A program made the position numbers and the translations under genes. From Harmothoe impar (Eukaryota; Annelida; Polychaeta; Phyllodocida; Polynoidae), in assembly GCA_947462335.1 (NCBI GenBank), contig OX381718.1, positions 39,400,976 through 39,464,975 of the forward strand: a stretch of DNA of 64,000 nt, written 5' to 3'. Shown here one piece after another: positions 1 through 59,622 of the stretch; position 1 is the first letter of the stretch; each line of letters starts with the position of its first letter. Below the pieces are notes generated by a model. That model was given only the letters and a program-made list of their open reading frames with translations, was not told the DNA's origin and searched no databases.

Positions 1-938
1 ACCACTTCCGGTTTCAGCTTTCTTGGCCAAGACACGTTGAGTCTCGGCAGTGCAATGGGTTCATTTTGCCTCATTTTTAAAGTACTATGGACATGTACAA
101 CAGCTTGTATTCTCCATTGTGGTGATTCCAAAATACAACCATCCTTAATTACAATGACAGTAGGCTTTACCACCTGCCTCTTGACTGGTGCTTCAGTCAT
201 GCATCTCAAAATTACTTGCTCCCCTTTTTCCCCTGGTGCCACAATTACACTGTTATCTAGTGGTGAAATCTTAAAAATGTGGGAAGACTTGTTCCCGGCT
301 GCAAATATTTGAATATCACAATCATCCGGTGCAAACCCATTGACCAACTGACTCTCACATGATTTAGCCAGATTCTCTACATCCGGCCAGCATACCTTGG
401 GTCTTTTTCCCAGACAATTGAGTGGTGTAAAAGAAGATTTAGTCATGGTGTGTAACACCACACTGCTCCTCCCCTGCACCACTCTCAAGTGATCATCCAC
501 CAACGGCACCGGTACATAAAACAATGAATATAAAATAAATCTGTCGGCATCAACCGCTGGTAGCACAGCTCTGAAAGCAAGGTGATCATTAGCTTCCCAC
601 ATTGGGACCACAGCCACATATTGGTAGTACCACACTGGAGGCAACGCCTCATACCCCTTCTTTTCAATATTTACAATTATGTCAGTTAATTGATTAAAAT
701 TTATAATATTTTCTGTCAACCATCCTCGCTCCACCTCTGCTCTCTTTTGGTGATAGTCTTTAACAGTCTGTATGTATGAATTAAATGCAAACTCGGCCTC
801 CTGGAGGGCCACATCCAGTGCTCTGGCCACTTTCAGTCCACTTATGGCCTCGAAGTCACTTTTCTCCGCTTGCCTGTTCATAGCCACTTGTCTTAAAGCC
901 TCTGGTGACAGATTTTGGACAGTGTCAATATGGTTCTT
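1..938 (-). CDS. Retroelement Env-like protein, partial (runs off window)
   Basis: Reading the minus strand down from 938, one frame stays open for 312 codons to base 1. It is cut by the window edge; an in-frame TGA lies at 941-939 and the first ATG is at 881. An N-terminal helical, charged region (motif QKRAEVERGWL) is followed by a pattern of aromatic, Leu and Pro residues: YYQYVAVVP, then HLAFRAVLPAV, then FILYSLFYVPVP. Next comes a Cys-spaced segment (KVCWP, KSCESQL, DDCDIQ, LRCMTE). That order resembles fusion-type Env proteins of insect errantivirus/metavirus-like LTR retroelements; this is recognition by eye, not a search. The frame may begin at a splice acceptor, since no ATG precedes the conserved-looking part. 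No LTR, protease or pol is visible nearby, so it may be an isolated fragment or a co-opted gene. The open frame argues against an old neutral relic. Confidence 0.5.
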
Positions 939-8850: not shown

Positions 8851-9274
8851 ATTAATTTGTACAACAATCATGAATTTCCAATGTATGTATACTGAGCTGC
8901 TTATGAATGTTATATGCTTGAATAAACAGCAGAAAGTTTCAGTGGAATTCCTTTTTAAATAGTGGCACACTTCAGCTTATTACTAATCACTGCTTTGAAG
9001 TGCTTAATAAGAACTGCAGAGCAAGTCACTTATAAGTGCTGCTTTATAGCAGTGGGGTAGTGTCACAATTATAATCTTTGAATAAATTTGACTTTTGTTG
9101 CCCTTATTAGCTGAATTATTGAACCTCTTGATAACCACTGCTTTGAAGGGCTTAATAAGTGCTGCAGATTAGCTGACTAATAGTTCTTACATTCTAGCCA
9201 CAATATAGAAGGATAATAAGCACTTCATTGGAGAGCTTATTAGTCACTTATTAAGCGTTGCTGTGCCCACTGGG

Positions 9275-10194
9275 AAGAGTGTGGATTCACAGTCTTCCTT
9301 TTTGAAAGAAAAATCAACTAGAACAACCCCTGACTGCTGGCTGCAAATGAATCTATACAGCTCTCAGAACCCACCAGAAAAAACCCGTTTGCCTCGAGAT
9401 CTCGAAAATACCCTGTGGGTACCAAGCTCGCTGTACCCTGCTTGCAACTTTATATGTGACCTTAAGTTTTTATAAAAGGTCCACAAGTTCAGTTAAGCTC
9501 TCCAACCGCACCCCTTCTTTCCCCTCAATGCCACTCCCTCCTTCTCAATGTGTTCAAATATATGTTATAGGTGGGGGGCATGCCTTCAGGTGACAAAAGT
9601 ATTTTTCCAAAGGATCTCTCCCTCCAAAAAAATCCCAAACCAAATGATAGAGGCTAGATGTAGATCAGACCTTTCATAAAGTGTGTGCAAATTCATAAGA
9701 ATGGACTATTTGAAGGCTATAAGTTCAAAATTGTCTTGAGGGGGCATGCCCCCAAACCCCCCAGTGTGACAACTGCAGTTCACTTGTGGTGGCTGCAGCC
9801 CTTCGTTTGCGGTGTTCTGCTGCAATACCCATTCCATATAGATTGATCACATATCTCCCCTAGATAATCCTACTACTACCAATTTTGTAACCTAACAGGG
9901 TATAACATACATGAAAACACATAGAATTACCCTTAAAATATATGAGCGGTTAAAAAAGTACTATTGACAGCTTGTGAAAGTAATTAAAATGAAAGCATCA
10001 AGCCACAATTAGTTTTGCCTTTCAGCTTTAATTTTGCACCCATATTGCATTTTGGGGGGGCTGATTCTTTCATATTTATGACAATCAATGTCTATTACGG
10101 CAATATTATTAGGTCTCAATGCTAGAAACCTGCAAAAGATTAACTTATGAAATTATTATTGTCATCTTTCACATTTTTCAGGAAAACGACCCAA
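9275..10194. other. No gene recognised
   Basis: AT-rich DNA with short G runs (for example near 9735 and 10055). No feature could be supported. Confidence 0.4.
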
Positions 10195-10325: not shown

Positions 10326-10998
10326 GTGGGAGCTCAATGTGCTAAGCCCACAAGAGGCTTAAAGGTAAGGTGGTATATGCCTTTGGTCTTGGCAGGCCTC
10401 CTCCTACTGCAGGAGGCTTAACTGCACATTAACATTCACAGGGAAAACACAGTAACAAGTCATATAAAGTCTGGCTAAAAGTGTCATAACCACCATACCC
10501 ATTGTTAATTTGGTAACTCAACCAGTGTGAAAGTATATGGTTCTACACAGTAGCGTGTGTGACTTTAATTTGTCTATGAGCCTATTGATAGATGGTTAAT
10601 ATTGTCCAGTGAGATTCTAGCAGTGCCATTCGAGGCTTAAAAAAGTATGTATGATATGGTTTATGGTCTTTATGATTATAAATATTGCCATTCGAGGCTT
10701 CAATGTATTAGTCTCACTTCAAGGTCAATCAAACTCACTTGCTGAGAGGTACAGTTTTATAACTGCTCAGCTCTCTGTGTACTTCTCTCTCTCTGTATGT
10801 ATTGTGTGTGCCCCTCGTCACCAGGCACGGCCTGTTTTATGCCCCTCTCGATGGAGTGATCAGGTGGAGCGGTGTGGCCTTCGGTCATCGGTTAATGGAC
10901 AACATGTGAGCAGGCGTTGAGAAGGAGAGCTGTGAGGTAGTTCCATGCCCGGCATTATGAGTAGATCCATGCATCAATCTAATACACAGCCTAGCTAT

Positions 10999-16605: not shown

Positions 16606-16611
16606 TATGTG
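16606..16611. repeat. 6-bp target-site duplication, left copy
   Basis: TATGTG immediately outside the left end of the 9.4-kb element, matching TATGTG at 25974-25979. Lies in CTGT-rich host DNA. Confidence 0.85.
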
Positions 16612-16710
16612 AGTAGTATAGTATGTATCGGAACGGGACTATAGTTAAGTACTGTTTATTACTCAATCGACCTGCAGCCAATCAGAGGCCTCCATTTGGT
16701 CACGTGACCC
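16612..16710 (+). repeat. Left terminal inverted repeat (99 bp)
   Basis: Identical to the reverse complement of 25875-25973 except one base (C at 16672). Includes a CCAATCAG box and a GGTCACGTGACC palindrome at its inner edge. Confidence 0.95.
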
Positions 16711-17100
16711 CCTCATTTGCATAATTACGTAATAGGCCACGCCCCCTCATTTGCATAATTACGTAATAGGCTACGCCCCCTTGATCACCAGCCAATCAGA
16801 GGCCACCATTTGGTCACGTGACCCCCTCATTTGCATAATAGGCCACACCCCCTTGATCACGTGACCCTTTCATTTGCATAATAAGCCACGCCCTCTTGAT
16901 CACCAGCCAATCAGAGGTCGCCATTTGGTCACGTGACCCCCTCATTTGCATAATAGGCCGCGCCCCCTTGATCACGCGACCCCTTCATTGACATGATAGA
17001 CCACAACAACATCACGTGACTATCTTTGTTTGTAAACAACACCACGTGGCTCTCTTTGTTTGTAAACAACACCACGTGGCTCTCTTGTTTGTAAATAAGA
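16675..17100. promoter_or_regulatory. Left-end array of transcription-factor-like motifs
   Basis: Degenerate tandem modules of about 70-115 bp. I count three CCAATCAG (NF-Y-like), seven CACGTG (E-box), five ATTTGCAT (POU octamer), several CCACGCCC-type GC boxes, two TACGTAAT, and three GTTTGTAAA-type forkhead sites in the inner part (17020-17100). These are classical metazoan promoter/enhancer words. Whether they drive transcription inward, outward, or bind a transposition protein is not shown. Confidence 0.65.
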
Positions 17101-17157
17101 CTTACTAAGTTTAGGCATAGGTAACAGCAGTGTTTGTAAATAACGCCTACTATGTTT

Positions 17158-18291
17158 TCAGTCATAGGTGTCTAGAGCAGCAGCAGCAGCAGCATCTTCA
17201 GCAGCAGCAGCAGCAGCAGCCGCGTCATAAGTGTCTAGAGCAGCAGCCACGTCATAGATGACTAGTGCAGCAGCAGCAGCAGCATCTTCAGCAGCAGCAG
17301 CAGCAGCAGCAGCATCATAGGTGTCTAGAGCAGGAGTAGCAGGAGTGTCATAGGTGTCTAGAGCAGTGGCAGCAGCAGCAGCAGCATCATAGGTGTCTAG
17401 AGCAGGAGTAGCAGGAGCGTCATAGGTGTCTAGAGCAGTGGCAGCAGCAGTAGCAGCAGCGGCAGCAGCAGTAGCAGCAGCAGCATCAACAGTATCTTCA
17501 GCAAAAGCAGCAGCAGCCGCGTCATAGGTGTCTAGAGCAGCGGCAGCAGCATCTTCAGCAGCAGCAGTAGCAGCAGCGGCAGCAGTATCTTCAGCAGCAG
17601 CAGCGTCATAGGTGTCTAGAGCAGCAGCGTCATAGGTGTCTAGAGCATCAGCCGCAGCAGCAGCAGCATCTTCAGCAGCAGCAGCAGCGGCAGTAGCAGC
17701 ATCATCAGCAGCAGTAGCAGCAGCAGCAGCAACATCTTGAGCATCAACAGCATCTTCAGCAAAAGCAAAAGCCCGTAACTTAGCATCATGGGCATCAGTC
17801 ATAGCCGTAACAGCGACACTGCGACTAGCATAAGCAAAACAGGCTATTTTTTTAGCAGCTGTACAAGCATTAATAGCATTAGCCCTAGCAGCAGCCGCAA
17901 CAGCGACACTTTTAGCAGACGTTGCAGCATCAGTAGCAGCAGCATCGGTAGCAAGAGCGGAAACAGTAGCAAAAAGATTAGCAGCACGAGCAGCAGCGGC
18001 GAGAGTAACAGCAACGTTGTTAGCAGCATTGGCAACTTCGTATGCAGCATGTGTAGCACGAACAGCGATACGAGCTTCACGTTTTGCACGAGCAGCAGCA
18101 TTAGCTGCAGAAGTAGCCCTCACACTTTCTAGCCACCCGTACGAATCTTGATAAAAACCAACCTCCACCTTGCTACTTGTTGACTCATCAGTAAACATGG
18201 GCGTCTCCTCATGTGGTGTTGTCGCGGCTCTGTAGTAGTGTTGGGATTGCTCACATTCGGTAGAACGTAGAGTGATTCCTGATGACGCCAT
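17158..18291 (-). CDS. Alanine-rich helical protein A (377 aa), outward-facing
   Basis: A true ATG at 18291 and TGA at 17158-17160. Residues 1-60 are ordinary sequence (MASSGITLRSTE..., with TTPHEETPMF and GFYQDSYGWLESVRA). From about 60 the chain is mostly alanine with spaced Arg, Lys, Asp and Thr. From about 200 it becomes repeats of DTYDAA and AEDAAAA. The last third is partly GCT/CAG-type repeat expansion; the first half is not a simple DNA repeat. Predicted to be almost wholly alpha-helical, soluble, without signal peptide or membrane segment. The gene ends just inside the left regulatory array, mirroring protein B at the other end. Function unknown: possible structural or DNA-condensing role, or an expanded low-complexity relic. 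No clear TATA box seen upstream. Confidence 0.55.
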   Translation of the reverse strand: MASSGITLRSTECEQSQHYYRAATTPHEETPMFTDESTSSKVEVGFYQDSYGWLESVRATSAANAAARAKREARIAVRATHAAYEVANAANNVAVTLAAAARAANLFATVSALATDAAATDAATSAKSVAVAAAARANAINACTAAKKIACFAYASRSVAVTAMTDAHDAKLRAFAFAEDAVDAQDVAAAAATAADDAATAAAAAAEDAAAAAADALDTYDAAALDTYDAAAAEDTAAAAATAAAEDAAAAALDTYDAAAAAFAEDTVDAAAATAAAAAATAAATALDTYDAPATPALDTYDAAAAAATALDTYDTPATPALDTYDAAAAAAAAEDAAAAAALVIYDVAAALDTYDAAAAAAAAEDAAAAAALDTYD

Positions 18292-18596
18292 GCTGAAGGT
18301 GGTTGAAGAAGTGTGTGGGACTCATGTTTCACTCTCGCTTATGTACTAGGCTCCGAGATAAGCTTCTTAACTCAGGAGGAAAACTCTCACTAGGAAGGCG
18401 ACCGGCTGTCTACCTGTGTAGGTGCGGGTTCGTTACATCTTTAATCCTGTTCGACCCTCCGAGGAAATACATGAAAAAAACAAAAGACTCGAATCCGCAG
18501 ACAGTAGGAAGCTATAAGGAGCTTAACTCGTGTTTGATTTAAGCTGTCTACCACACGCACGCGCTTGTAGTCACAGCTAGAGTGGCAGACTTCTGT

Positions 18597-19160
18597 CCGC
18601 CCGCTGGCGCATGACAATCGACTTTAGACACCCCCTGTAGTTTTTTTTTTGCATACACAGTTGACTAGCATCTTAAGCTCTTACTCAGCTATAAGCCCAT
18701 ATACATGTAACGTGCATTACTCTTCTTTATGGTAATTATCAGATCGATTTAAGGGTGGAAAGGGCTTAGGTGATGTAGATCCCTCTCTAGCTGAAAACAG
18801 GCTTAGGCTATAGCATGTAGGCAGCTGGCCGCGTTAAACATCCCCTGTAGTTTTTTTGTATACACTCTCGATCCCCTCTCTAGGTGAAAACAAAAGCTTA
18901 GAAGATGAGGTGATCCGGCCACTGGCTGGCGCGTCACACCTGGCGTTAATCACCCCCTGTAGGCTTTGTATACGCTCTCTAGGTGAAAACAAAAGCTCCC
19001 TCCACGGGCTGGCGCGTCACACCTGTCGTTAAAACGCCCCCTCGAGTCTTAGTATACACAGGTGCCCCGCCTTATCTATTCACCAGCTATAAGCCCATAT
19101 ACGTGTACATGCGATTTTTGATACCCTCTCTGGAATAGGGTGGGGCTCAAGGTGAAAACA
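18597..19160 (+). repeat. Degenerate promoter-proximal repeats, about four modules
   Basis: Recurring order of GCTGGCGCGTCA-like, GTTAA, CCCCCTGTAG, GTATACAC-like and AGGTGAAAACAAAAGCT words. These end about 30 bases before the TATA box at 19186. Likely an upstream control region of the plus-strand unit. Confidence 0.55.
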
Positions 19161-19185
19161 AGATTAGTCCATTCGCTCTCTCAGC

Positions 19186-19194
19186 TATATAAAG
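19186..19194 (+). promoter_or_regulatory. TATA box, plus strand
   Basis: TATATAAAG within CAGCTATATAAAGAGCC, a strong core-promoter match. Transcription would start near 19220. A 5' splice-site-like GGTGAGTA follows near 19298. Confidence 0.6.
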
Positions 19195-19217
19195 AGCCTC
19201 AATTGTTCTTGCAACAG

Positions 19218-20095
19218 CACTTCACCACCGGTACACTATCAGTCACGAGGCAGATGTTTGCGGTATGGGTCATACAGGTTACCTACTAATAGCGGTTTGG
19301 GTGAGTAGATCACTTTTTTTCCCCTAAAAAAACAAAAAAAAAAACCACTTATGACTCAGGTATGTATATGTAGCACTGTTAGTGTAAGTACACAGTAGAA
19401 TCTACTGTACTATAGACTCAGCCCTCTGAAGACGGCGGAGCGCGTTAATGCGCGGGTCTGTGGCGGCGTCACTTGTTTTTTTATTCTAACTAAAAAGTCA
19501 GAAGTCGATCTACGACCAATCAAAGACAAATTTGTGATAAGTTCAAACTAAATAAGAGACAGTTTGAGCGTCTCTTAGTCGCTGTCAAAGATGCGAATAA
19601 CGAACGCGCTGAGGGCAGGGGTTCAGGTCACGTATAGTTCCTTGCTCTTTCGTCAGATGGCGCCACAATAGGGGATTTGTACATTCCTACGATGCTCGCG
19701 AACATTTCAACGCATAATGAGCTATATAGGCAACAAAGTGTGCTTCTGAATATATTAAAATATAAAAAACAATTCAATATTGTGTATTTCTGATAGAAAT
19801 GAGGCAGTTTCTTTGAATACCAACTAAACTATAGCGAGATGAAAAATACCACACCATATCTAAGGCTTTATAAAAGATACATAGGCAGAAACTCTCGCCG
19901 AGTTGGTAATCTGAAAAACGAATCAACTCGTTGTGCCACAAGGGCCCCCATCCAACGGGGGCCTTTTGAGCTCAGTCATGTTGTTTCTCAACACTAGGTG
20001 TAATTAATAACGCCCATGTTGAGTAGCATCTACTAACCAACTGACAGTGTCAGTTGGTTGGCCCCTCTTTAGGGGCCACACAATAAATAAAGAAT
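19218..20095 (+). ncRNA. Candidate non-coding transcript with 3' hairpins
   Basis: Between the TATA box and the AATAAA signals there is no reading frame beyond a few dozen codons in any plus-strand frame. Small ATG frames occur near 19253 and 19266 and could be a short spliced 5' exon, with GTGAGT near 19299 and a CAG acceptor near 19359. The 3' part holds successive perfect hairpins. The unit may encode a structured RNA or a short spliced mRNA; no homolog is recognised. Confidence 0.35.
19940..20091 (+). terminator. Hairpin cluster and polyadenylation signals
   Basis: Three stems: GGCCCCC/GGGGGCC (19943-19963, 7-base loop, then TTTT); an 11-bp stem AACCAACTGAC with 3-base loop (about 20035-20059); and GGCCCCT/AGGGGCC with 4-base loop (20060-20077). 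Two overlapping AATAAA (20082 and 20086) follow at once. The last stem with a 4-base loop recalls, but does not match, the metazoan histone 3' stem-loop. Confidence 0.5.
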
Positions 20096-20335
20096 AGAGT
20101 CCTAAGGGAACGTTCACAAACGTCTACCCTTCCTAAGGGGTGGGTGGGTCTTTGGGTTTAGTGACAAAACAGCGACATGTCAGCTCTCTTTTTTTTTCCA
20201 AGTCTACATATTATTTATGATTAAAAAATTTTAAAAAAAAAACCACGATAATAAAGTGCGCTGATCAAAAACTGAATAGAAAAATAACCAAAAATAGGTT
20301 GGTAGCTGATCGGTCGTTGTCACACGGTGCAGAAA

Positions 20336-20341
<6 letters not shown>

Positions 20342-20383
<42 letters not shown>
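20342..20383. repeat. Poly-T, 42 bases
   Basis: Uninterrupted T run. It could be the poly-A tail of a minus-strand retroposed sequence, but no retroposon body was recognised beside it. Confidence 0.9.
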
Positions 20384-20387
<4 letters not shown>

Positions 20388-20544
20388 ATTCTATATTTAG
20401 ACCACAGACGGGGCACATGGGACACTTGTCGAATATAAGAGATACCAATGGGTCTTGTCGAATTTAAGAACTAGGTCTTGGCCATTGTCATTGACTATTT
20501 TGAGAAGTAGTCTTGCCCGTCTTGCCCCTTGTCGCCAACTCCCA

Positions 20545-22116
20545 GCACCCCCTGTGTCTCTTTGTCCATATTGGCTAAAAACAGGACATTGTTGCCTTGG
20601 CTATTTTACCCCCCGTCTGGGATCTTATTACTTAATCACCTCGTCTTGACCCTGTGGGGTAGTGGGTATATGGAATAACCATGTCCAGGTGTACTCTATC
20701 TGACACATAACCGAAGGTTACTGAGTTATGTAATAATAACTGACCTATGAGGTCGCCAGTCAGTTTGCCGTGATTATTTTGACACACTCTCAGTTACTCG
20801 TAGCACATCTAATACATAATTAGACTCAGCATCATATAAGGCAGTCTCGGCCACGCCGCGGCTGCATATCGGACCAGGGGGATAGTCTGGCAGCGACCCG
20901 CCACCCCGTTCACAAGCTGTGTACAGCACCCCGTTTCTCTTTGTCCATATTGGCTAAAAAAACAGGACATTGTTGACTTGGCTATTTTACCCGTCTGGGT
21001 CTTATTATTTAAGCACCTCGTGTTGACCCTGAGGGGCAGCGGGTACATGGAATAAACGTGTCCAAGTGCACTCTATCTAACACATAACCGAAGGTTACTG
21101 AGTTATGTAATAATAGTTATGTAATAATAACTGACCTATGAGGTCGCCAGTCAGTTTGCCGTGATTATTTTGACACACTCTCAGTTACTCGTAGCACATC
21201 TAATACATAATTAGACTCAGCATCATATAAGACAGTCTCGGCCACGCAGGCTGCATATCGGACCAGGGAGATAGTCTGGCAGTGACCCACCAGCCCGTCC
21301 ACAACCTGTGTACAGCACCCCGTGTCTCTTTGTCCATATTGGCTAAAAAAAAACAAAAAAAAAAAACAGGTCATTGTTGACTTTGGCTATTTTACCCGTC
21401 TGGGTCTTATTATTTAAATCACCTCGTCTTGACCCTGTGGGGCAGTGGGTATATGGAATAACCGTGTCCAAGTGTACTCTATCTAACACATAACCAAAGG
21501 TTACTGAGTTATGTAATAATAACCACCCTATGATCCTATGAAGTCGCCAGTCAGTTTGCCGTGATTATTTTGACATACTCTCAGTTACTCGTAGGGTATC
21601 TAATACATAGTTAGACTCAGCATCATATAAGACAGGCTCGGCCACGCCGGCTGCATATCGGACCAGGGAGATAGTCTGGCAGTGACCCACCAGCCCGTCC
21701 ACAACCTGTGTACAGCACCCCCTGTCTCTTTGTCCATATTGGCTAAAAAAAACACCAAAAAAAACAGGTCATTGTTGACTTTGGCTATTTTACCCGTCTG
21801 GGTCTTATTATTTAAATCACCTCGTCTTGACCCTGTGGGGCAGTGGGTATATGGAATAACCGTGTCCAAGTGTACTCTATCTAACACATAACCAAAGGTT
21901 ACTGAGTTATGTAATAATAACCACCCTATGATCCTATGAAGGCGCCAGTCAGTTTGCCGTGATTATTTTGACATACTCTCAGTTACTCGTAGGGTATCTA
22001 ATACATAGTTAGACTCAGCATCATATAAGACAGGCTCGGCCGCGCCAGCCGCATATCGTACCAGAGGGATAGTCTGGCAGCAACCCGCCATCCCGTCTAC
22101 AATCTGTGTACAGCAG
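20545..22116 (+). repeat. Tandem array, about 380-400 bp unit, four copies
   Basis: TTTGTCCATATTGGCTAAAA recurs at 20561, 20940, 21329 and 21729 (spacings 379, 389, 400). Units share a CTCTATCT / ACACATAACC block, a near-palindrome around GTTATGTAATAATAAC, and GTCGCCAGTCAG. Length differences lie mainly in A runs and in an added ATCCTATG. The last unit is truncated near the palindromic insertion. No coding frame is conserved between units. Confidence 0.9.
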
Positions 22117-22176
22117 TCTGGACCAGACCACCAACTCTGGGTATAGCATTCTGGATGCCTGGAGCAAGACTGGATC

Positions 22177-22355
22177 TAACCCTTTAATAGTCGCATAGCG
22201 CTTTAATGTGCAGTGCCCGTTGTCGTCATAAGTCATGAATGCAGCACTCAGAGTTCCTCACCAGGGCTGCATGCATGCATACACGGGCATATCGACAAAG
22301 GGCGTAGCGCATTAAAGCACTATTGCCGCCTTTAGCATTAAAGCGCTGAGGGTTT
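22177..22355. mobile_element. Nested-palindrome element, copy 1 (shortened)
   Basis: TAACCCTTTAA left end and TAAAGCGCT right end with an inner ATGAATGCAG / CTGCATGCAT hairpin. Inserted inside the 9.4-kb element, so it is younger than that insertion or was carried with it. Confidence 0.75.
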
Positions 22356-22616
22356 ATTTTTTGATAGTGTAGAAACCAATATCTGTCTAATTAAACCCCT
22401 TATCAGTGCTGTTTTTTTTTTTTTTCACATACAAAAAGAATTAGGTAATGGCGCTGCAGTACTCTGAAAAGCGGTGGCGGTGAATTTCCATTTAGATCCT
22501 GAAAAGGGGGGCGGTCAGATGTCGTCAAGACCCTGATAAGTAGGGCAGTTAAAATCATATGATTACATTGAGCTAATTTTCTTGCTGAAAGGAATGAATA
22601 ATTGTATTTGTATAAA

Positions 22617-22619
<3 letters not shown>

Positions 22620-22704
<85 letters not shown>
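22620..22704. repeat. (AC)n microsatellite
   Basis: About 42 perfect AC units. Confidence 0.98.
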
Positions 22705-22707
<3 letters not shown>

Positions 22708-22936
22708 ACACCTGATGATCTCCACACGATGACCTGATTGCCCTTCCTAAAAAAAAATGCCCAACTCGATCTACCTACTCAACAGGGTTTCAGTGTAGAG
22801 CGTATTAGGGGTTTTTCTGATGCGTATATTATATTGAGATTGATTTTCAACTTTTGTGATCAGTGGTTGGTCCTTAAAAGGACCGTTTGGTAGAGAGAGG
22901 GTCGCAGGGACCTTGCTGCTGAAGCGGAGGGTGTGG

Positions 22937-23349
22937 TCATAACGCGTGGCAGTCCTTCAGCAGCTCCTCCAGCACGGCGGGCGGTAGGCCTTCCTCCATG
23001 CAGACTTGCTGCTTGACCTGCTCCACGCACCGGCGGATGAGTTGATCAGCGACGTTCTCGATCAGCTCATCCACCACACCCTCTGCTTCAGCAGCAGTCC
23101 GCTGTCTCTCCTCTCTCTGTAGCGAGGCTACGAACTGCTTCTCCACGGCCGCATCGATCATAGATCGAGAAACGGCCACGAAGTTCTGTCTCTCCGCCTC
23201 CTCTCTCTGTTGCACGGCTACGAATTCCTTCTCCACGGCCGCATCGATAGAGGAGGAGGAGGAGGAGGAGGAGGAGGAGGAGATTAATTTATTTTTTTTT
23301 TTATTTTTTATTTTTTTTTGATCATTTAGGCAAAGCTCGTCGCTTTGCC
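22937..23349 (-). CDS. Coiled-coil-like ORF in -1 frame (possible frameshift extension)
   Basis: Minus-strand frame open from just after a TAG near 23364 to a TGA at 22937-22939. Order: a Lys/Asn-rich stretch from A runs, eleven Ser codons (TCC repeat, 23249-23281), then two copies of an IDAAVEK(E/Q)FVA module with REE/ERQ heptad-like charge, and a C-terminal helix ending VLEELLKDCHAL. It has no ATG, but lies exactly in the -1 frame of the gene at 23326-23976 and overlaps its end. The natural reading is a C-terminal extension made by -1 frameshifting, or a gene broken by one indel. Function unknown. Confidence 0.5.
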
Positions 23350-23976
23350 GTTTTTTTTTCTATTTCTGTGTTGTGACACGATCGTCTCGAAAAAGCAATA
23401 AGGCGTGTGAGCGCGGCGGTGACAAATACATATTGGAGCGTATGGTTTAAAATAGTGCGTCCCTATCTTCTTCAATTCGGCTGCGTTGCAATATGCGGGA
23501 TAACAAGTGACGACGTCGAAACGTTTAGAGACCGTGTTCACGTCGGCCACAAAGCGCGCCCACCGAGTGGGAGCTGCAGTCGCTCCCAAGAAACCGATCG
23601 GCTTGTCGAATCGTTTCATAGCACTTATTCTCACTTTATAAGAGGAGGCAGGGTGAGGAGAGTAGCGGCGCTCTTTCTTTTCATGAAACGCCCAACGAGT
23701 GGGGGCGCTGAGAGCGGCTGTTATGCAATAGTAGAGTAAATGCTGTTCTGAGAAGACGGCTCTCGGCCATGTCGCTACGTTTTCCTTTTCCGCTCTTGTA
23801 TAACGACGATGGCGCTCAGCTTTGCATTTCTCGAGAATTCGGTACGCTTCAAGAGAAGCGTGAACCTCAACTACGTGACGCTCTCTCCTTTGAGATAAAA
23901 AAATAGCCGGGCAGTTGAGGAGAGCACTTTGTTCGCGCGACCGTCTTTTAGAAACTCGCGCCCTCTGCAGCGCCAT
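23326..23976 (-). CDS. Basic 216-aa hypothetical protein
   Basis: The ATG at 23976 is the first on the transcript downstream of a TATA box at 24195-24203. Stop is TAA at 23326-23328. The N-terminus is strongly basic (MALQRARVSKRRSREQ), followed by an Arg/Lys/Glu helix, then two APTRWA motifs about 40 residues apart, and a Cys/His-containing tail (CICHRRAHTPYC). No family recognised; a nucleic-acid-binding role is possible from charge only. GC content is higher than in flanking DNA. An acceptor-like TTTTCACTCAG sits about 32 bases before the ATG. The end overlaps the candidate frameshift signal. Confidence 0.5.
   Translation of the reverse strand: MALQRARVSKRRSREQSALLNCPAIFLSQRRERHVVEVHASLEAYRILEKCKAERHRRYTRAEKENVATWPRAVFSEQHLLYYCITAALSAPTRWAFHEKKERRYSPHPASSYKVRISAMKRFDKPIGFLGATAAPTRWARFVADVNTVSKRFDVVTCYPAYCNAAELKKIGTHYFKPYAPICICHRRAHTPYCFFETIVSQHRNRKKNGKATSFA
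23329..23359 (-). promoter_or_regulatory. Candidate -1 frameshift signal
   Basis: On the minus strand an A9 run and C (23359-23350) contains A_AAA_AAC in the phase of the upstream gene. It is followed without a gap by a perfect 8-bp stem GGCAAAGC/GCTTTGCC with a 5-base loop, then the stop codon. Slipping back one base enters the open -1 frame of 22937-23349. The absent spacer is unusual for frameshift stimulators. On the plus strand the same DNA looks like a hairpin plus T9. Confidence 0.45.
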
Positions 23977-24194
23977 ATTTCTTTCCTCCGAAACAAAAAA
24001 GACTGAGTGAAAATAAAAATTTTTAAAAAACAAAAAGCTCAAACAAAAAAAATAAGCAATAAGCAGACTCAGCTCGAAATTCCCTGCTGGTGTGATGGCG
24101 GTGACTGCAGGCGGTGGCGGCGGTCGGCTGGCCGGCGGTGGCGGTGTCGGCGGCGATGGTAGAAGGGTGTGTGGAAAGAGAGACGCATCTCAGT

Positions 24195-24203
24195 CTTTTA
24201 TAG
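24195..24203 (-). promoter_or_regulatory. TATA box, minus strand
   Basis: CTATAAAAG on the minus strand, about 220 bases upstream of the ATG at 23976. Predicts a start near 24170. Confidence 0.6.
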
Positions 24204-24707
24204 GAGCGGCGAGTCTGACATTTTCAGCTGTCGCATGCTGACCTGCTGCTATCATAAGAGAAACAAAAGCCCTAATCACGCTTTTCAGCTGGATCCTTCC
24301 ACCCCGCCAGACATGGATCCAGATGGGAAGGTGGTTTAAAATTAAATCCGTGTACCGACTGTCATACAATAGAGTAATTAGTTGAACGCGTGTTACCTGT
24401 ATAAAGGATTAGCGGGTCATGGGCTCAGCGTGTGTATAGAAAAACAACTACAGGTAGCGTGAACAAAGCGACCCCCTCCCTTTCTGTCACTCTGTCTGTG
24501 ACTAGAGGGTGTGCGTGTGGTAAGCGGCTTAAATCTAAAGAAAAACAAATCACCCTCTCCTGTCGTCAGCAGTCAGCCGGCCGGCGGCTGGAAAATGCGA
24601 TTAGAGGGATGATGAGCCGCGTAGTAAGCGACTTAAGGCTGATCTAAAGACCTGCCGTGAGGGGGCAGCTGGCCGGTGGCTTGAAAAAAAAGGGGGGGGA
24701 GTAAGGG

Positions 24708-24715
24708 TATATAAG
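24708..24715 (+). promoter_or_regulatory. TATA box, plus strand
   Basis: TATATAAG in a G-rich context, about 120 bases before the ATG at 24829. With the minus-strand TATA at 24195 it forms a divergent pair about 500 bp apart. Confidence 0.6.
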
Positions 24716-24755
24716 GGGGAGTGAAACCGTATTCGGCATCGTCATCATCGTTCAC

Positions 24756-24756
24756 G

Positions 24757-24793
<37 letters not shown>
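24756..24793. repeat. (CTA)n microsatellite
   Basis: About 12 CTA units in the predicted 5' leader of alanine-rich protein B. Confidence 0.95.
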
Positions 24794-24801
<8 letters not shown>

Positions 24802-24828
24802 GCACCGCGCCTCAATTTGCAGATCCCC

Positions 24829-25464
24829 ATGATGGAAAGTTGCTACCGTGACATGAAGCGGAATGACGAAGCGGCGCGCGAATGTGAAGCTGATGCTGTA
24901 GCCTCTGCTACTGCTGCTGCTAGTGCTGCTCAGCGTGCTACTGCTGCATTTACTGCGGCTGTTAGTGACGCTGGTTGTGATGACGTTGTTGTTGTTGCCG
25001 CTGCGGCTGTGACTGCTGCTGTTGCTGCCGCCGATGCAGCTACTCATGCCACCGATGCCGACGCTGCTGCTGCTGATGCTGTTGCGGCTGCCGATGACGC
25101 CGCTGATAACGCTGCTAGTGCCCGCTCTGCCGCCCTTGCTACTGTCGCTGCTGCTGTTGTTGCTAATGCTCACGCTACTGCTGCTACAGCTGCTGCTACT
25201 GCTGCTACCGCTGCTGCCGAGGCTGCTGCCGCTGCTGCCGATGCTGCTGCCGATGCTGCCGATGCTGCTGCCGATGCTGATGTTAGCAGTCGCGTCGACA
25301 AAGAATCGTCATTTGTCACTCTTAAACCTCCAGTTGAACGCGCGATGAGTAGTAGGGCTACCAACGCGACGGCCGGATGGTGCAACTGGTGTCGTCGCTT
25401 CTGCTCGTGCGCTTGCTTTTCTTCCAGTCCTACCTGCTGCTGCTACGGTATGATAGTGTTATAG
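24829..25464 (+). CDS. Alanine-rich helical protein B (211 aa), outward-facing
   Basis: Start chosen at the ATG at 24829 (MMESCYRDMKRND), since upstream in-frame codons are the CTA repeat and the TATA box is at 24708. Residues about 20-175 are mostly alanine with regularly spaced Asp, Thr, Val and Asn (for example ADAVAAADDAADNAA). Alanine is written with GCT, GCC, GCG and GCA mixed, more than plain trinucleotide expansion would give. The C-terminus changes to a Cys-rich tail with WCNWCRRFC and a final CCCYG. No signal peptide at this start. Transcription runs toward the right end, as protein A runs toward the left. The N-termini of A and B are unrelated by eye. Function unknown; Ala-rich amphipathic helices suggest a structural, condensing or ice-/surface-binding-like fold, none demonstrable here. 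Confidence 0.55.
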   Translation: MMESCYRDMKRNDEAARECEADAVASATAAASAAQRATAAFTAAVSDAGCDDVVVVAAAAVTAAVAAADAATHATDADAAAADAVAAADDAADNAASARSAALATVAAAVVANAHATAATAAATAATAAAEAAAAAADAAADAADAAADADVSSRVDKESSFVTLKPPVERAMSSRATNATAGWCNWCRRFCSCACFSSSPTCCCYGMIVL

Positions 25465-25576
25465 TGTTTGAATGAGAACGCGCGTAGTTACACATAGACG
25501 CTGTAACAGATGTGCTTTTTTTTTTGAAAATATAATTTTAACATAACATGGAACTTGTTGTGTTTATTTTCTATAT

Positions 25577-25890
25577 ATAAGTTGTTTGTTTACAAACAGT
25601 CACGTGTCACGTGGTGTTGTTTACAAACAAGAGAGCCACGTGGTGTTGTTTACAAACAAACCCTAAGTAGGTCACGTTACCCTAGTTACCAGAATGCCGG
25701 CTTCTGATTGGCTGAGCCTAAGTAGGTCACGTGACGTAAGCAGGTCACGTTACCATGGTTACCAGAATGCCGGCCTCTGATTGGCTGAGAGCTTCTAAGT
25801 AGGTCAGTAGGTCACCCAGAATGCTGGCTTCTGATTGGCTGAGAGCCCTAAGTAGGTCACGTTACCATGGCAACGGGTCACGTGACCAAA
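25577..25890. promoter_or_regulatory. Right-end array of transcription-factor-like motifs
   Basis: Mirror counterpart of the left array: inner GTTTACAAAC forkhead sites with CACGTG, then repeats of GATTGGCTGAG (inverted CCAAT), AAGTAGGTCACG and CCATGGTTACCAGAATG. The module types differ from the left side although the outer 99 bp are almost identical, so the inner arrays have turned over independently. Confidence 0.6.
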
Positions 25891-25973
25891 TGGAGGCCTC
25901 TGATTGGCTGCATGTCGATTGAGTAATAAACAGTACTTAACTATAGTCCCGTTCCGATACATACTATACTACT
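25875..25973 (-). repeat. Right terminal inverted repeat (99 bp)
   Basis: Inverted match to 16612-16710 with one mismatch. Confidence 0.95.
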
Positions 25974-25979
25974 TATGTG
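25974..25979. repeat. 6-bp target-site duplication, right copy
   Basis: TATGTG, identical to 16606-16611. CTGT/TCTC-rich host DNA continues to about 26260. Confidence 0.85.
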
Positions 25980-26411
25980 TGTGTCTGTCTGGCTCACTTC
26001 CTGTCTCTCTACCTATACATATCCTTCCACCTGACTGTCTGCCATCATACCGTCTCTCTGCTTGATGTCTTTCTCCCCCCCCCCCCCCCTCACCCCACCC
26101 TGAATGTCCTACCAAGGCTTGGGGCCTCTCTCCCTGCCTCTTTGTCTCTTGTGTTTATCTATCTCTTTCTGTCTGTCTCTATCTGTCCCTGTCTGTCTCT
26201 GTATCATGACTGCCTCTGTCGCTGTAAGTCTGTCTCTGCCTGTCCCTCCCCCTCCTACTCACACCTAAGGCCGTGGGACGCGCCTTATTTCAGTAAATAC
26301 GCCGGTGTTTGGGAGTTGCTATGGTAACGGTTTCGGTCGGCGTGCAGGTCAGGAGGCATCGATCGTCACCACCTGGTGGTCGTCAGCCGAACTAAGTCGT
26401 GTCTGCCGGCC

Positions 26412-26677
26412 TTAACCCTGTAAGGGCCGCACAGTGCTTTAATGTGCTATACCCTTGGTGGTCATGATGCATCAATGCAGCGGCCATGGTGAGGGTGCGT
26501 GTCAGGGCTGCATCCATCCATCCTGCCGACTCTTTGGGAGTGTCCCAACCCAGTAGCGTCGACATGATGCTTGTGTGCAGCCCTGGTCAGTAAACTCGTA
26601 AGGTTCTCATTCATAAATCATGACAATATATTAAAGGCATAACACATCAAAGCGCTATGCGGCCCTCAAATGGTTAA
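26412..26677. mobile_element. Nested-palindrome element, copy 2 (full length, 266 bp)
   Basis: Near-complete example. TTAACCCTGTAAGGGCCGC at the left mirrors GCGGCCCTCAAATGGTTAA at the right. A TGCTTTAATGTGCTAT block pairs with AACACATCAAAGCG, and inside are two lateral hairpins built from ATGCATGAATGCAGCCCTGG. No coding capacity. Confidence 0.85.
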
Positions 26678-26989
26678 ATACCCCCATTGATGGGCTGTCA
26701 CGGCCCAATGGACACGCGTATTACGCGCACAGTAATACTCAGTTAGAACATGGGCTATTACCGGAATCTGATTAGAACATTGCTATTATAGACTTGGACT
26801 CTAATTAGAACCCATGCACGGTATAGCGCCATCAAAAGTCAGAAATGACATATCATTATCATCAATGCAACTGCTGTTAGTATAATTTAGAGGTAGGATA
26901 AAGGGAGAGAGAGGGAGATGGACAGTCACATATCGGCTGATACGATTTGCAGACCAGGTGTGCAAGCAACCAGAGGGCATCAATAATGA

Positions 26990-37784: not shown

Positions 37785-38030
37785 TTAACCATTTAACGGG
37801 TGCATAATGTGCGTTGCCCTTTGTCATCACTGTGCATGAATGCAGCCCTGGTGATGGACTCGCCATGTAGTGTTGTATCAAAGCATCATGCCAACCCAAT
37901 AGGGTTGATACACTCCCAAAGGGTGTCCATGGTGCATCCCTGATGAGTACACTCATCAGGGCTGCATTCATGCATCATGCCGACAAGGGGCAGATCACAT
38001 TAAAGCACTCTGTAGCTCTTGAAGGGTTAA
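37785..38030. mobile_element. Nested-palindrome element, copy 8
   Basis: TTAACCATTTAACGGG left, CTCTTGAAGGGTTAA right; 103 bp from copy 7 in the same orientation. Confidence 0.85.
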
Positions 38031-38565
38031 GTATCTGTGTATATGGGGAATCTATCTCAACCTTCTCACAACAGAGGACACCTATTTCAGTCTTCTTTCT
38101 GTCACTGTCTAGCCTGGTATTTATAGTACCTTATATAAAGCTAAGACTTTTGCTTTCAGCCTGTATTCACTGGCATTTCCGCTGACATTTGCAAAGATGG
38201 TAAACACAAAACAGGTGGCTCATTCTGTAATTAAATGTACAAATGAGTCGAATTTAGGAGCAAAATTTAAACTCATCCATGAATACCCTCATCATCAACA
38301 CGATATTCCACCTCTTTGCTCCAGATATTTAAGCTTCTGTATCTTGTCAATGTCAGGGAGTTATTTGCGACATCTTTTTACAAATGGATGGCCGACCTGT
38401 CACGGAATACTTGATGCTTTTAATTGCGCCAGAAGACTGATATTTGGAACATGAGTGTTCACTTACATTGAAACTATGGTGAGGTAATTTACATGTATGA
38501 GGGAGTGGTATCAAAAAAGAGGCATTTTTCATGGAATGTGGAATTTTACCATGTTTTACAATTCA

Positions 38566-46702: not shown

Positions 46703-46955
46703 GTCCTTTAAGGACCGCATAGTGCTTTAATATACCATGTCCTTGGTCGTCAAGATACATGAAGGCAACCGTCGGGAATCTACTCGCCAGGGCTGATTTA
46801 ATGCATCATGCTGACCCTACGAGGTTGATTCACTCCCTAAGGGTCGGCATGATACATGTACTCAGTCATGGTGCGTAGATTCACCAAGGCTGCATTCATG
46901 TATCATGACGACAAAAGGTGCAACACATTTAAGCGATATGCTGCCCTTGAAGGTC
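46703..46955. mobile_element. Nested-palindrome element, copy 12
   Basis: TCCTTTAAGGACCGCATAGTG left, TATGCTGCCCTTGAAGG right. Confidence 0.85.
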
Positions 46956-51904: not shown

Positions 51905-52160
51905 TTAACCCTGTAAGGGCCGAATGATGCTTAAATACATTATACTATCGTGGACACGATGCATGAATGCAGCCTTGGTGATTGACTCACCAGTGCTGCA
52001 TTCAAGTGTCCTGCCAACCCTATGAGCCTGATACGACCCTGAAGGGTCGGTGTGATGCAATGAATGCAGCCCTGGCGTGAGTAGACTTACCAGGGCTGCA
52101 TGCATGCATCATGCCCACACAGGGCATGGCACATTTAAGCACTATCCGGCTTTAACACTG
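51905..52160. mobile_element. Nested-palindrome element, copy 17
   Basis: TTAACCCTGTAAGGGCCGAAT left, GGCTTTAACACT right; clear central GAAGGGTCGGTGTGATGC. Confidence 0.85.
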
Positions 52161-53568: not shown

Positions 53569-54236
53569 GCTGAATTCAGACAGTAAGTCTGGGTAGGATT
53601 CTACATTGTAGTACATGTAACCATGACAAGGTTCCAATCAATACCAGACTCCATTTAGTATAACCCACATGGTAGACACCCTCTATCCCAAAGACAAAAA
53701 CTCCTCAGTCATTTACAAAAATAAAAAAGGGTGCCAAAGCACAAAGTATGTCCTACTGAATTATTCACAGAGCTTCCATTTACAAAATCAAACAGGGTTC
53801 CAGGCCAATGACTCCATTTCCTTAGTGAGAGAAACAGAAAAAAAGGAGTGAAAGCTCCATTTGTGACTGCTAACATTACAAAACAAACACTATAGGGACG
53901 AGTATATTCATATATCTTGAAACAAGGGGTATTAATTAAGGGCTATTAATATAATCATACAGAGAGAAAGCCTTTAAAAATGTAATTTAAACAGTATGCA
54001 TTGTATCGTGCTCATTTTTTCCACAGCAGGGGGGGGGGGCGGGGGTGGATTGGGGGCGGGGGCGGCCCCTTGACCAGGCTGGGGGGCAAAGAATGTCAAA
54101 CCCTGGGCAGCTGCTAGAGGGGGGGGGGGCGGGGGGTTCGACCCCCTTTGGGGTGGGGGGGGGGGGGATTCAAGCGCCCGTCGAGATCTCCCATCACCCA
54201 TGCACCCTTGTTGTTAAACAATGATCATTCCCTAAT
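53569..54236. other. No gene recognised
   Basis: G-homopolymer-rich (54029-54168) left flank of the retrotransposon. Confidence 0.4.
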
Positions 54237-54524
54237 CAGTGAAGTCGGACAACAAAGTATAGTATGGAGTCTTTATCCTGTGAACTGTTGGACATAGACA
54301 AGTTGGTACATCTCAATACAATGGTACATGAAAACAATTAATATATGAATGCAGTTTTACATCTCATATGTCGTTACATCATGAAAAATACATTTGGAGT
54401 TATATCATGAAAAATACATGTTCAAAGACAGTGTTTACATGTTGAAGAAAATAATAATGTCATTTCTATGACATGACCCAGTGTCTTATAGGGTTATATG
54501 AGTGAGTCAGACAGATTTTTTAGG
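54237..54524 (-). repeat. Split direct repeat B2 (288 bp)
   Basis: Same sequence as 54771-55058 at an offset of 534, with one substitution near the inner end (A at 54512-54513 region versus C). Confidence 0.93.
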
Positions 54525-54585
54525 CGTATGATAGGAGTCTTTAAGACGAGTCTGATCTTGTAGACCTAAGGGTGGGAGGGCGTGG

Positions 54586-54770
54586 TAAATCACGTCACCA
54601 CCCCGGGGCGAGCAGCAGAGAAAAGGAGCGGGGTCCGGCGCGCAAGGGTTTATATAGGGAGTAGTTCCAATTCCGGCCACTTGGGGTGCCACCAGTAGGC
54701 GCGGACGCTGAGGGAATGTCCAGTTTGCCGCCCTCCTCTGATTACATGTAATTTACAATTACTTCACAAT
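54586..54770 (-). repeat. Split direct repeat A2 (185 bp)
   Basis: Identical by eye to 59623-59807. Adjoins B1 directly, so the internal A2/B1 junction (ACTTCACAATCAGTGAAGT) reproduces the joined ends of a circular intermediate. Confidence 0.93.
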
Positions 54771-55058
54771 CAGTGAAGTCGGACAACAAAGTATAGTATG
54801 GAGTCTTTATCCTGTGAACTGTTGGACATAGACAAGTTGGTACATCTCAATACAATGGTACATGAAAACAATTAATATATGAATGCAGTTTTACATCTCA
54901 TATGTCGTTACATCATGAAAAATACATTTGGAGTTATATCATGAAAAATACATGTTCAAAGACAGTGTTTACATGTTGAAGAAAATAATAATGTCATTTC
55001 TATGACATGACCCAGTGTCTTATAGGGTTATATGAGTGAGTCAGACCGATTTTTTAGG
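54771..55058 (-). repeat. Split direct repeat B1 (288 bp)
   Basis: Partner of B2. Contains the stop codon and last few codons of the recombinase gene. Confidence 0.93.
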
Positions 55059-56036
55059 TGCAAAGAGAGTTGCCATGGCAGTGGCGACGGAAGCTGAGGG
55101 CTGAGGAGGGACATAGGTAGACATTGGCCACTCCGAGCGCCAGGTGCCATGGACTTTGATGTCATCCCTTTTTGCCCCTGCTGACTGGGCAGCCAGAGCT
55201 CCCCCGCGACGCAGGGAATGTGATGACGTTGTGTAGGCATATGGACATTTAAGGACACTAAGGGCCTTGCGAAGCATGTTGACCATGTGAATGGTAGTCA
55301 GAGGCCTCCCATCAGAGAGGAGGAAGGCCGGCATCTCAGGAGAAGATGGGACTAAGTCAGTGTAGGTCTTCCATGCCTGAGCTGGGCAGGCTGGGGACCC
55401 AGGGATCCTTGGCAAGGCTAGGACCACAGGATGTCCGGTCACTGAGATGGTCTTAGAGGACCTCAGGATGACTACCAGCCCCGTCGGGTGCAGGAGGACG
55501 TCCCGACGTCTGAGGGTATGTGGGCCGCTCCAGAGTGTTGCAGTTGGAGACAGCAGGTTGGAGGTCCTAAGAAATCCAAAGTATCCCAAAGTAATCGCTG
55601 CTACTAGGGTTGGACCTTGGGGGACCTTAGACAGTAAGGCACAGGCCTGAACCAGGTATGTAGGTTCCAGGCCCGGTGCTGGTGAAGGTGTATAGTTAGA
55701 CAGTTTGACTGCCCCTTTTTCTACATACTTGGCCTGGCGGGAGGAGAGGGCTGAAGGGTCCCCCCCTCTATCCTGTATCCATCCCCGGGCACCACTGACG
55801 TAGTTCCTCCTGGCTTGAATGGATTCTAAGGAGTTGGCCAGAAATTGCATGTAATTGCAAGAGTCCATGATGGTAGGTTGGAGCAAGTCTATTCCATAGC
55901 ATAGGCCAAATGTGATATAGAACTGAGCCTGGCGCAGCTTGTTGAGGGCTGTGTCACCTGTGACTGCTGCCTGTAAAGACCTGTAGGCCTGAGCGCCGAG
56001 GGGAGTAGCTGAAAGACACATGTGGATTAGAGTCAT
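55041..56036 (-). CDS. Tyrosine recombinase
   Basis: Integrates the circular DNA copy of the element by site-specific recombination. About 331 aa from the ATG at 56036. That ATG overlaps the TGA of the RNase H frame (ATGA), which suggests reinitiation. An N-terminal helical core-binding region (about 20-115) precedes the catalytic domain. Visible catalytic residues: Arg in GYFGFLRTSN (about 157), the beta-hairpin Lys in RSSKTIS (about 195), His-x-x-Arg in SHSLRRGG (about 273-276), the HGTW box (about 296-299), and nucleophile Tyr in MSTYV (about 308). All expected positions are filled, so it may be active. The C-terminus lies in repeat B1. Confidence 0.92.
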   Translation of the reverse strand: MTLIHMCLSATPLGAQAYRSLQAAVTGDTALNKLRQAQFYITFGLCYGIDLLQPTIMDSCNYMQFLANSLESIQARRNYVSGARGWIQDRGGDPSALSSRQAKYVEKGAVKLSNYTPSPAPGLEPTYLVQACALLSKVPQGPTLVAAITLGYFGFLRTSNLLSPTATLWSGPHTLRRRDVLLHPTGLVVILRSSKTISVTGHPVVLALPRIPGSPACPAQAWKTYTDLVPSSPEMPAFLLSDGRPLTTIHMVNMLRKALSVLKCPYAYTTSSHSLRRGGALAAQSAGAKRDDIKVHGTWRSEWPMSTYVPPQPSASVATAMATLFAPKKSV

Positions 56037-58029: not shown

Positions 58030-58105
58030 GGTGCCTGGGTCCTGTAGTATGATATTATTAGCAACTGGAACAGTCTGTCCCTCCGGTAGGCCGGCGGAGG
58101 CCGGC

Positions 58106-59602: not shown

Positions 59603-59622
59603 GATGCTAACTGTTATCTGTC

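What the first reader, a model, noticed from the sequence alone, without database searches (positions are those of the whole stretch)
16606..25979. 9.4-kb element with Polinton-like ends but none of the Polinton genes
Seen: 98/99 identical terminal inverted repeats starting 5'-AG, exact 6-bp duplication TATGTG, clean insertion in CTGT-rich DNA. Known: 6-bp duplications and AG ends are Polinton/Maverick traits, and those elements normally encode pPolB, integrase, ATPase, protease and capsids. None is visible here. Instead there are two alanine-rich proteins, a basic protein with a possible frameshift and a hairpin-tailed RNA unit. It could be a non-autonomous derivative with its own cargo or an undescribed element class.
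Basis: partly seen in the sequence, partly recalled or inferred. Interest (0 to 1): 0.9.

Follow-up and report, generated by a model that had tools for sequence, protein, structure and literature searches.

The report
Hybrid element from abundant Polinton-type family
A 9.4-kb jumping DNA element in an animal genome turns out to be a hybrid of two kinds of virus-like element, out of a family with thousands of copies that share the same ends; the one kind read almost in full carries virus-shell and integrase genes but no recognisable DNA polymerase.

Summary
In detail: 9,362 bp (16612-25973), inverted ends 98/99 identical, AGTAGT...ACTACT, exact 6-bp duplication TATGTG. These ends match the commonest vertebrate Maverick (Polinton) end motif. 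An exact 37-mer of the end occurs 10,412 times in the host's 1.51-Gb assembly (reversed control 0). Of 42 listed end pairs, 38 span 8.7-10.5 kb.

At least three interiors share these ends. Class A (~10.5 kb) encodes rve integrase, packaging-type ATPase, adenain-like protease, double-jelly-roll capsid protein, the "basic protein" and the right alanine-rich protein, with no room for a protein-primed polymerase. Class B (~9.8 kb) carries the left alanine-rich gene, structured RNA unit and 398-bp repeats. Class C (~9.4 kb) carries a Death-domain gene.

The window element is B (left) joined to A (right) at 23248|23249. One TSD flanks both halves, so it recombined before inserting. The "frameshift" is this junction.

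Best reading: a non-autonomous recombinant of a recently active Polinton-type family, moved by class A integrase and copied by a polymerase supplied in trans. Bold reading, not excluded: a multipartite Polinton virus. Whether pPolB Polintons of this genome share the ends remains untested.

The parts
16606..16611 (.). target-site duplication TATGTG, left copy
16612..16710 (+). left terminal inverted repeat, begins AGTAGTATAGTATG
   Evidence: 98/99 to the right end; the 37-mer start occurs 10,412 times in the genome
16675..17095 (+). left subterminal repeats (CCAAT, ATTTGCAT, TCACGTGA, TTTGTAAACAA units)
   Evidence: all 12 positions of the GTCACGTGA/TCACGTGAC pattern (overlaps counted) and all 5 TTTGTAAACAA units of the window lie in the element's ends
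17158..18291 (-). class B gene: 377-aa alanine-rich protein (P0006)
   Evidence: 109 scored of 2,237 candidates, 147 matched stretches at 95-100 %
19190..20110 (+). class B RNA unit: TATA-like box about 19186, hairpin cluster 19900-20075, AATAAA 20082
   Evidence: fold z -8.4; 40 of 40 scored copies 98-100 %, of 1,399 candidates; 38 of 40 lie 895-900 bp from a P0006 gene
20577..22115 (.). class B 398-bp tandem repeats, 3.9 units
22177..22340 (.). copy of a repeat family dispersed in the flanking host DNA
   Evidence: self-comparison
22350..23248 (-). class B module with 99-aa ORF (22937-23236); last class B sequence before the junction
   Evidence: 39 of 39 other scored matches stop at window 23248
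23248..23249 (.). B|A recombination junction, beside a GGA repeat
23326..23976 (-). class A gene: 216-aa basic protein (P0001)
   Evidence: 28 of 30 copies encode an identical protein; 150 scored of 1,880 candidates about 100 %; three relatives 79-96 % in the protein collection
24832..25464 (+). class A gene: about 210-aa alanine-rich protein (P0007)
25586..25910 (-). right subterminal repeats; also found, inverted, at the left end of a class A copy
   Evidence: L090 left end matches window 25586-25973 at 99.7 %
25875..25973 (-). right terminal inverted repeat
25974..25979 (.). target-site duplication TATGTG, right copy

Best explanation
The 9,362-bp element is one insertion of a non-autonomous recombinant from a large, recently active Polinton/Maverick-type family. 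Its left 6.64 kb come from class B elements and its right 2.72 kb from class A elements. SHOWN: ends, TSD, junction, high copy number, and class A genes for integrase, packaging-type ATPase, adenain-like protease and double-jelly-roll capsid protein. INFERRED: the class A integrase recognises the shared AGTAGT ends of all classes in trans and makes the 6-bp duplication. INFERRED: replication is protein-primed from these ends (the AGT repeat suits slide-back initiation, recalled) by a polymerase made elsewhere, such as the pPolB Polintons of the same genome. INFERRED: B and A recombined while both were being copied, before integration. INFERRED: class A capsids may package all classes, which would explain the narrow size range. 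The first two rivals below are refinements of this reading, so the odds do not add up to one.
For: Ends (AGT)2//(ACT)2 with 6-bp TSD equal the commonest vertebrate Maverick end motif (PMC8097293, passages). Same ends on elements with rve integrase (PF00665, 3.5e-13), ATPase (Adeno_IVa2, 24.3 bits against a cut-off of 21) and an MCP whose model matches PBCV-1, mavirus and Sputnik capsids. 10,412 exact ends, control 0. 38 of 42 adjacent +/- end pairs listed span 8.7-10.54 kb. Class A, B and C genes each fall inside such pairs. All 39 other scored matches of the class B module stop at window 23248, and all 29 other class A loci fetched align only from about 23249-23253 rightwards. One shared TSD for both halves argues for recombination before insertion and against misassembly.
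Against: TSD was tested for the window copy only; elsewhere I read one end at a time. Trans-mobilisation and packaging are untested. The protease (20.7 against 21.3 bits) and the chromodomain (19.5 against 25.1 bits) lie under their curated cut-offs. No terminus was found in any of the 30 pPolB loci read (about 1.5 kb each side), so the polymerase donor is unproven. Class C was read for about 1.5 kb only and class B's right third for 250 bp. 16 of the 100 listed ends are not in adjacent +/- pairs, and 4 of 42 pairs span 13-94 kb. Genes broken up by introns were not looked for in the window copy.
Confidence: 0.82

Rival explanations
1. Multipartite Polinton virus: classes A, B and C are genome segments of one virus with identical termini and matched sizes, A being the virion and integration segment and others the early or host-interaction segments. 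The window copy is an inter-segment recombinant.
For: One set of near-identical ends on at least three distinct gene sets; narrow size range (mean 9.76 kb, SD 0.50 kb, n = 38); genes mostly intact and nearly identical in each class; no polymerase found in A; a B|A recombinant with a single TSD.
Against: No class with a polymerase and the same ends was found. B and C are only partly read. Satellites riding on a helper would look much the same.
Confidence: 0.3
2. Ordinary cheaters: A, B and C are independent deletion or capture derivatives of an undetected autonomous Polinton with pPolB and the same ends.
For: Many intact pPolB ORFs occur in the genome; non-autonomous derivatives are common in DNA transposons generally (recalled).
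Against: Class A keeps a virion gene set, and its first-look candidates (1,880) outnumber those of pPolB (695); no pPolB locus read showed the ends (limited reach); the sizes do not scatter as deletion derivatives usually do.
Confidence: 0.45
3. Assembly chimera: the B|A junction at the GGA repeat is a misassembly of two neighbouring insertions.
For: Junction beside a simple repeat; no second B|A copy seen by eye in the scored lists, which are capped (150 of 1,880 and 109 of 2,237 candidates).
Against: The same hexamer TATGTG flanks both ends (chance about 1 in 4,096); the total length fits the family range.
Confidence: 0.04
4. Another 6-bp-TSD transposon superfamily (IS3EU/GingerRoot) or an unrelated new class.
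For: 6-bp TSD; no transposase recognised in the window copy.
Against: IS3EU ends are TA..TA and GingerRoot ends mostly TA..TA (PMC10045372, passages), here AG..CT; same-ended relatives carry Polinton virion genes.
Confidence: 0.02

Closest known systems
Polinton/Maverick (polintovirus) elements
   Same: (AGT)2//(ACT)2 ends, 6-bp TSD; class A relatives carry rve integrase with a weak chromodomain match, packaging ATPase, adenain-like protease, DJR capsid protein
   Different: Window copy has none of these genes; class A lacks a recognisable pPolB and is about 10.5 kb instead of 12.7-24.6 kb (PMC8097293) or 15-20 kb (PMC4028283); ends in the thousands, against at most 38 intact copies per vertebrate genome (PMC8097293, which also mentions hundreds of defective copies in two genomes). 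How many copies here are intact throughout was not established
Adintoviruses / meldviruses (PMC11071296, passages)
   Same: Adenovirus-like virion proteins with rve integrase and chromodomain; that survey also reports genomes with adenovirus-class virion proteins that lack recognisable PolB and Integrase
   Different: Here the integrase is kept without PolB, and several classes share the same ends
Bidnaviruses (segmented; pPolB of adintovirus/Polinton kind)
   Same: Would be the model for a multipartite relative of Polintons
   Different: ssDNA viruses with a parvovirus-type capsid protein (PMC4061559, abstract start in a listing; PMC11071296, passages); here DJR capsid genes and integrated copies

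Membership tests
Polinton/Maverick | 5'-AG (here AGTAGT) inverted termini | tested here: met
Polinton/Maverick | 6-bp target-site duplication | tested here: met
   TATGTG both sides in the window copy; other copies not tested on both sides
Polinton/Maverick | protein-primed DNA polymerase B in the element | tested here: not met
   none among the four ORFs of the element scanned; class A has no space for it in the pieces read; separate pPolB loci exist
Polinton/Maverick | rve integrase in the element | tested here: not met
   none among the four ORFs of the window copy scanned; present in class A with the same ends
Polinton/Maverick | packaging ATPase, cysteine protease, DJR capsid protein | tested here: not met
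   none among the four ORFs of the window copy scanned; class A: ATPase over cut-off, protease 20.7 against 21.3 bits, MCP fold matches mavirus, Sputnik and PBCV-1
Polinton/Maverick | mobilised by Polinton integrase and pPolB | not testable with these tools
   needs biochemistry
IS3EU/GingerRoot | TA..TA termini with 6-bp TSD | tested here: not met
   termini are AG..CT; definition from PMC10045372
Multipartite virus | complementary gene sets on segments with common ends | tested here: inconclusive
   three gene sets with common ends found; replicase segment not found

The most novel reading that the evidence does not exclude
A multipartite Polinton: a virus-like system whose genes are spread over at least three segment types (A virion + integrase ~10.5 kb, B alanine-rich protein + structured RNA ~9.8 kb, C Death-domain protein ~9.4 kb) with identical protein-primed-type ends and packaging-limited sizes, integrated as about 5,200 recent copies (roughly 3 % of the genome, extrapolated), with inter-segment recombinants such as the window element.
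Probability: 0.3. Interest if true: 0.95.

Novelty: new variant of a known kind. Interest (0 to 1): 0.8.

Why it matters
Polintons are usually described as single elements that carry both replication and virion genes. Here the one class read almost in full keeps integrase and virion genes without a recognisable polymerase, and shares its ends with two other abundant gene sets. That makes division of labour, helper dependence or a multipartite life cycle in Polintons directly testable. The copies look recent enough for active movement to be plausible. A structured RNA and a Death-domain gene spread by virus-like ends would also be new routes of host interaction.

Tried and rejected
Folding the 216-aa basic protein with 4 sequences gave no usable model (pLDDT 32.6). 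IMG/VR held neither an exact 21-base end core nor a relative of the basic protein (the tool notes that records of this or very near genomes may be left out). Rfam gave nothing at gathering scores and ARAGORN no tRNA. I noted that the hairpin GGCCCCTCTTTAGGGGCC resembles a histone-type 3' stem-loop (recalled), but its stem is 7 bp, not 6, and no family matched, so I do not claim it. A protein search with the first 190 residues of the left alanine-rich protein gave nothing at 1e-3 among the 8,000 candidates scored; low-complexity words make this uninformative. The 40 main TIR hits all begin with TATGTG. I read this as a seed effect (the tool skips common words), because none of 20 copies picked by their gene is followed by that hexamer. 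A sequence search of the capsid profile against PDB chains found nothing; the fold search did. The capsid alignment used 36 of the 37 relatives (the 734-aa rve-bearing one was left out). A divergent-end query (L007) meant to find larger Polintons did not complete. Literature: none of the phrases non-autonomous/nonautonomous/defective Polinton or non-autonomous Maverick occurred in the 15 of 128 papers listed. The listings showed no title on a multipartite Polinton. This covers the open-licence library only; the adintovirus founding paper was not held.
Full report
OBSERVATION. The window holds one element of 9,362 bp (16612-25973). Its 99-bp ends differ at one position, it begins AGTAGT and ends ACTACT, and TATGTG flanks it on both sides. 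A 21-bp core of the end occurs nowhere else in the window. The host assembly could be searched: 1.51 Gb, 736 contigs, unnamed. An exact 37-base start of the TIR occurs 5,195 times on one strand and 5,217 on the other; the reversed control has 0. The first 100 places listed (C1, up to 5.26 Mb) give 42 adjacent plus/minus pairs, of which 38 span 8,728-10,537 bp (mean 9,760, SD 499); 4 span 13-94 kb, and 16 ends are in no such pair. The 38 lengths fall into 8,728 (1), 9,208-9,601 (20), 9,692-9,881 (6) and 10,344-10,537 (11). If that sample is typical there are about 5,200 elements, roughly 3 % of the genome (inference).

CLASS A. The 216-aa basic protein of the window gave 1,880 first-look candidates; the 150 scored all match over the full length at about 100 % without stops. 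Of the 30 loci fetched, 28 encode one identical protein. In the 29 loci other than the window, the match to the window runs only from about 23249-23253 to the right, at about 94.5-99.6 % identity. On the other side lies a gene for a P-loop ATPase (Adeno_IVa2 24.3 bits against a cut-off of 21; Pox_A32 20.6, just under 22.8). The next 6 kb of one copy encode, on the same strand, an rve integrase with a weak chromodomain match (PF00665 3.5e-13; Chromo 19.5 bits against 25.1; chromobox chains in PDB at E 0.003-0.01), a protease (Peptidase_C5, 20.7 bits against 21.3), a 434-aa protein, a basic 147-aa frame, a 382-aa frame and a frame of at least 370 aa. The 434-aa protein has 37 relatives, among them 'F54H12.2-like' of the sea urchin Lytechinus variegatus and an rve-bearing protein of the sea cucumber Holothuria leucospilota. 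Its model (pLDDT 86.4) matches PBCV-1, mavirus and Sputnik major capsid proteins (E down to 1e-16, probability 1.00; TM by query 0.46-0.67 in the 50 rows shown, at about 8-14 % identity). It is therefore a double-jelly-roll capsid protein by fold. Both ends were located in four copies: about 10,539 bp for the C4 copy (L090 and L071) and 10,537, 10,457 and 10,508 bp. The parts read leave no space for a polymerase of the size seen in this genome (most intact frames about 1,100-1,570 aa). At 20 of 20 copies the right end is exact and the following host DNA differs. The left end of the C4 copy matches the window's right end, inverted, over at least 388 bp at 99.7 %.

CLASS B. The left alanine-rich protein gave 2,237 candidates; 109 scored, 147 matched stretches, 95-100 %, one place with a stop. 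The RNA unit (window 19190-20110) gave 1,399 candidates; 40 scored, 98-100 %. In 38 of 40 it lies 895-900 bp from the alanine-rich gene, in divergent orientation; the other two had no such gene in the list used. The hairpin cluster at its 3' end folds with z = -8.4 against dinucleotide shuffles and is followed by AATAAA. Window 22350-23250 gave 1,871 candidates; 40 scored; all 39 others stop at query base 899, which is window 23248 (36 of them from base 1), and many lie in the same B copies. One B copy with both ends located is 9,822 bp. A 250-base probe in a B copy equals window 19572-19821 exactly; another, beyond the module, is not in the window.

CLASS C. One TIR hit (L008) leads into a Death-domain gene (PF00531 22.7 bits against 22.6). 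Its protein gave 3,866 candidates; 150 scored, 99-100 %. Of five such hits in the C1 stretch, four lie in end pairs of 9,391-9,533 bp, and one lies by an end without an exact partner. From the length distribution this is probably the commonest class (inference). Other TIR hits (L004-L007) share only 344-397 bp with the window's left end and lead into DNA without long frames.

THE WINDOW ELEMENT is therefore B on the left (6.64 kb) and A on the right (2.72 kb). The junction ...CGCATCGAT|AGAGGAGG... sits at the GGA repeat of class A. The TIR is only 99 bp long because the B and A ends share just that much, and the 'frameshift' is the junction. Since one TSD flanks both halves, the recombinant existed before it was inserted, so A and B were probably copied in the same cell (inference).

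HOW IT PROBABLY WORKS. Shown: ends, duplication, and an integrase gene in A. Inferred: integrase acts in trans; replication starts from the protein-primed-type AGT-repeat ends with a polymerase made elsewhere; A capsids may package all classes. The pPolB search gave 695 candidates, 83 scored, with many intact frames. None of the 30 pPolB loci fetched shows the end within the stretch held, but those loci reach only about 1.5 kb to each side of the match, so this is not a test.

COMPARISON. (AGT)2//(ACT)2 ends with 6-bp TSD are the commonest arrangement of vertebrate Mavericks, whose intact forms are 12.7-24.6 kb with at most 38 intact copies per genome; hundreds of defective copies are mentioned for two genomes (PMC8097293, passages). 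Polintons are described as 15-20 kb with pPolB, integrase, ATPase and protease; that study reports nine elements without MCP, protease and ATPase (PMC4028283, passages), that is, loss of virion genes, whereas class A here lacks the polymerase. Genomes with adenovirus-class virion proteins but lacking recognisable PolB and Integrase have been reported (PMC11071296, passages). PLVs mostly lack pPolB and rve integrase and encode other replication proteins (PMC11071308, passages). IS3EU ends are TA..TA (PMC10045372, passages). I saw no report of several gene sets sharing one set of Polinton ends, within the listings.

Noticed in passing
window 54234-59807: DIRS-like retroelement: reverse transcriptase (PF00078, 27.7 bits against a cut-off of 29.6), a tyrosine-recombinase-like frame (by eye) and split direct repeats of 291 and 185 bp at 99.7-100 %.
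   Followed up: partly
window 3-938 (-): 312-aa open frame that by eye resembles a retroelement or baculovirus-type envelope protein; no Pfam match over a cut-off.
   Followed up: no
window 22912-23111: Strongest predicted fold of the element's scan, on both strands (z -8.6 and -6.7), over the 99-aa class B ORF.
   Followed up: no
window 22177-22340, 26411-26680, 37815-38031, 46705-46953, 51905-52155, 61594-61826: Dispersed, partly palindromic repeat family of about 250 bp (possible MITE), with one copy inside the element.
   Followed up: partly
L084 (C1:121971634): A class A element inserted into the RNA unit of another copy: the host side reads, by eye, as window 19234-19263.
   Followed up: partly
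G000 C18:56736415-56739226: Three Death-domain genes in tandem about 1.1 kb apart.
   Followed up: no
G000 C19:16984708 and 16995218: Two class B copies in the same orientation 10,510 bp apart.
   Followed up: no
G000, loci L039-L068: Two recent pPolB subfamilies (about 1,189 and 1,177 aa, about 98-99.7 % within each among the loci compared) and a diverse 1,400-1,567-aa group; their ends are unread.
   Followed up: partly
window 20577-22115: The distance from the P0006 gene to the 22350 module differs between class B copies by about one 398-bp unit (for example 4,792 against 5,189 bp), suggesting unit-number variation.
   Followed up: partly
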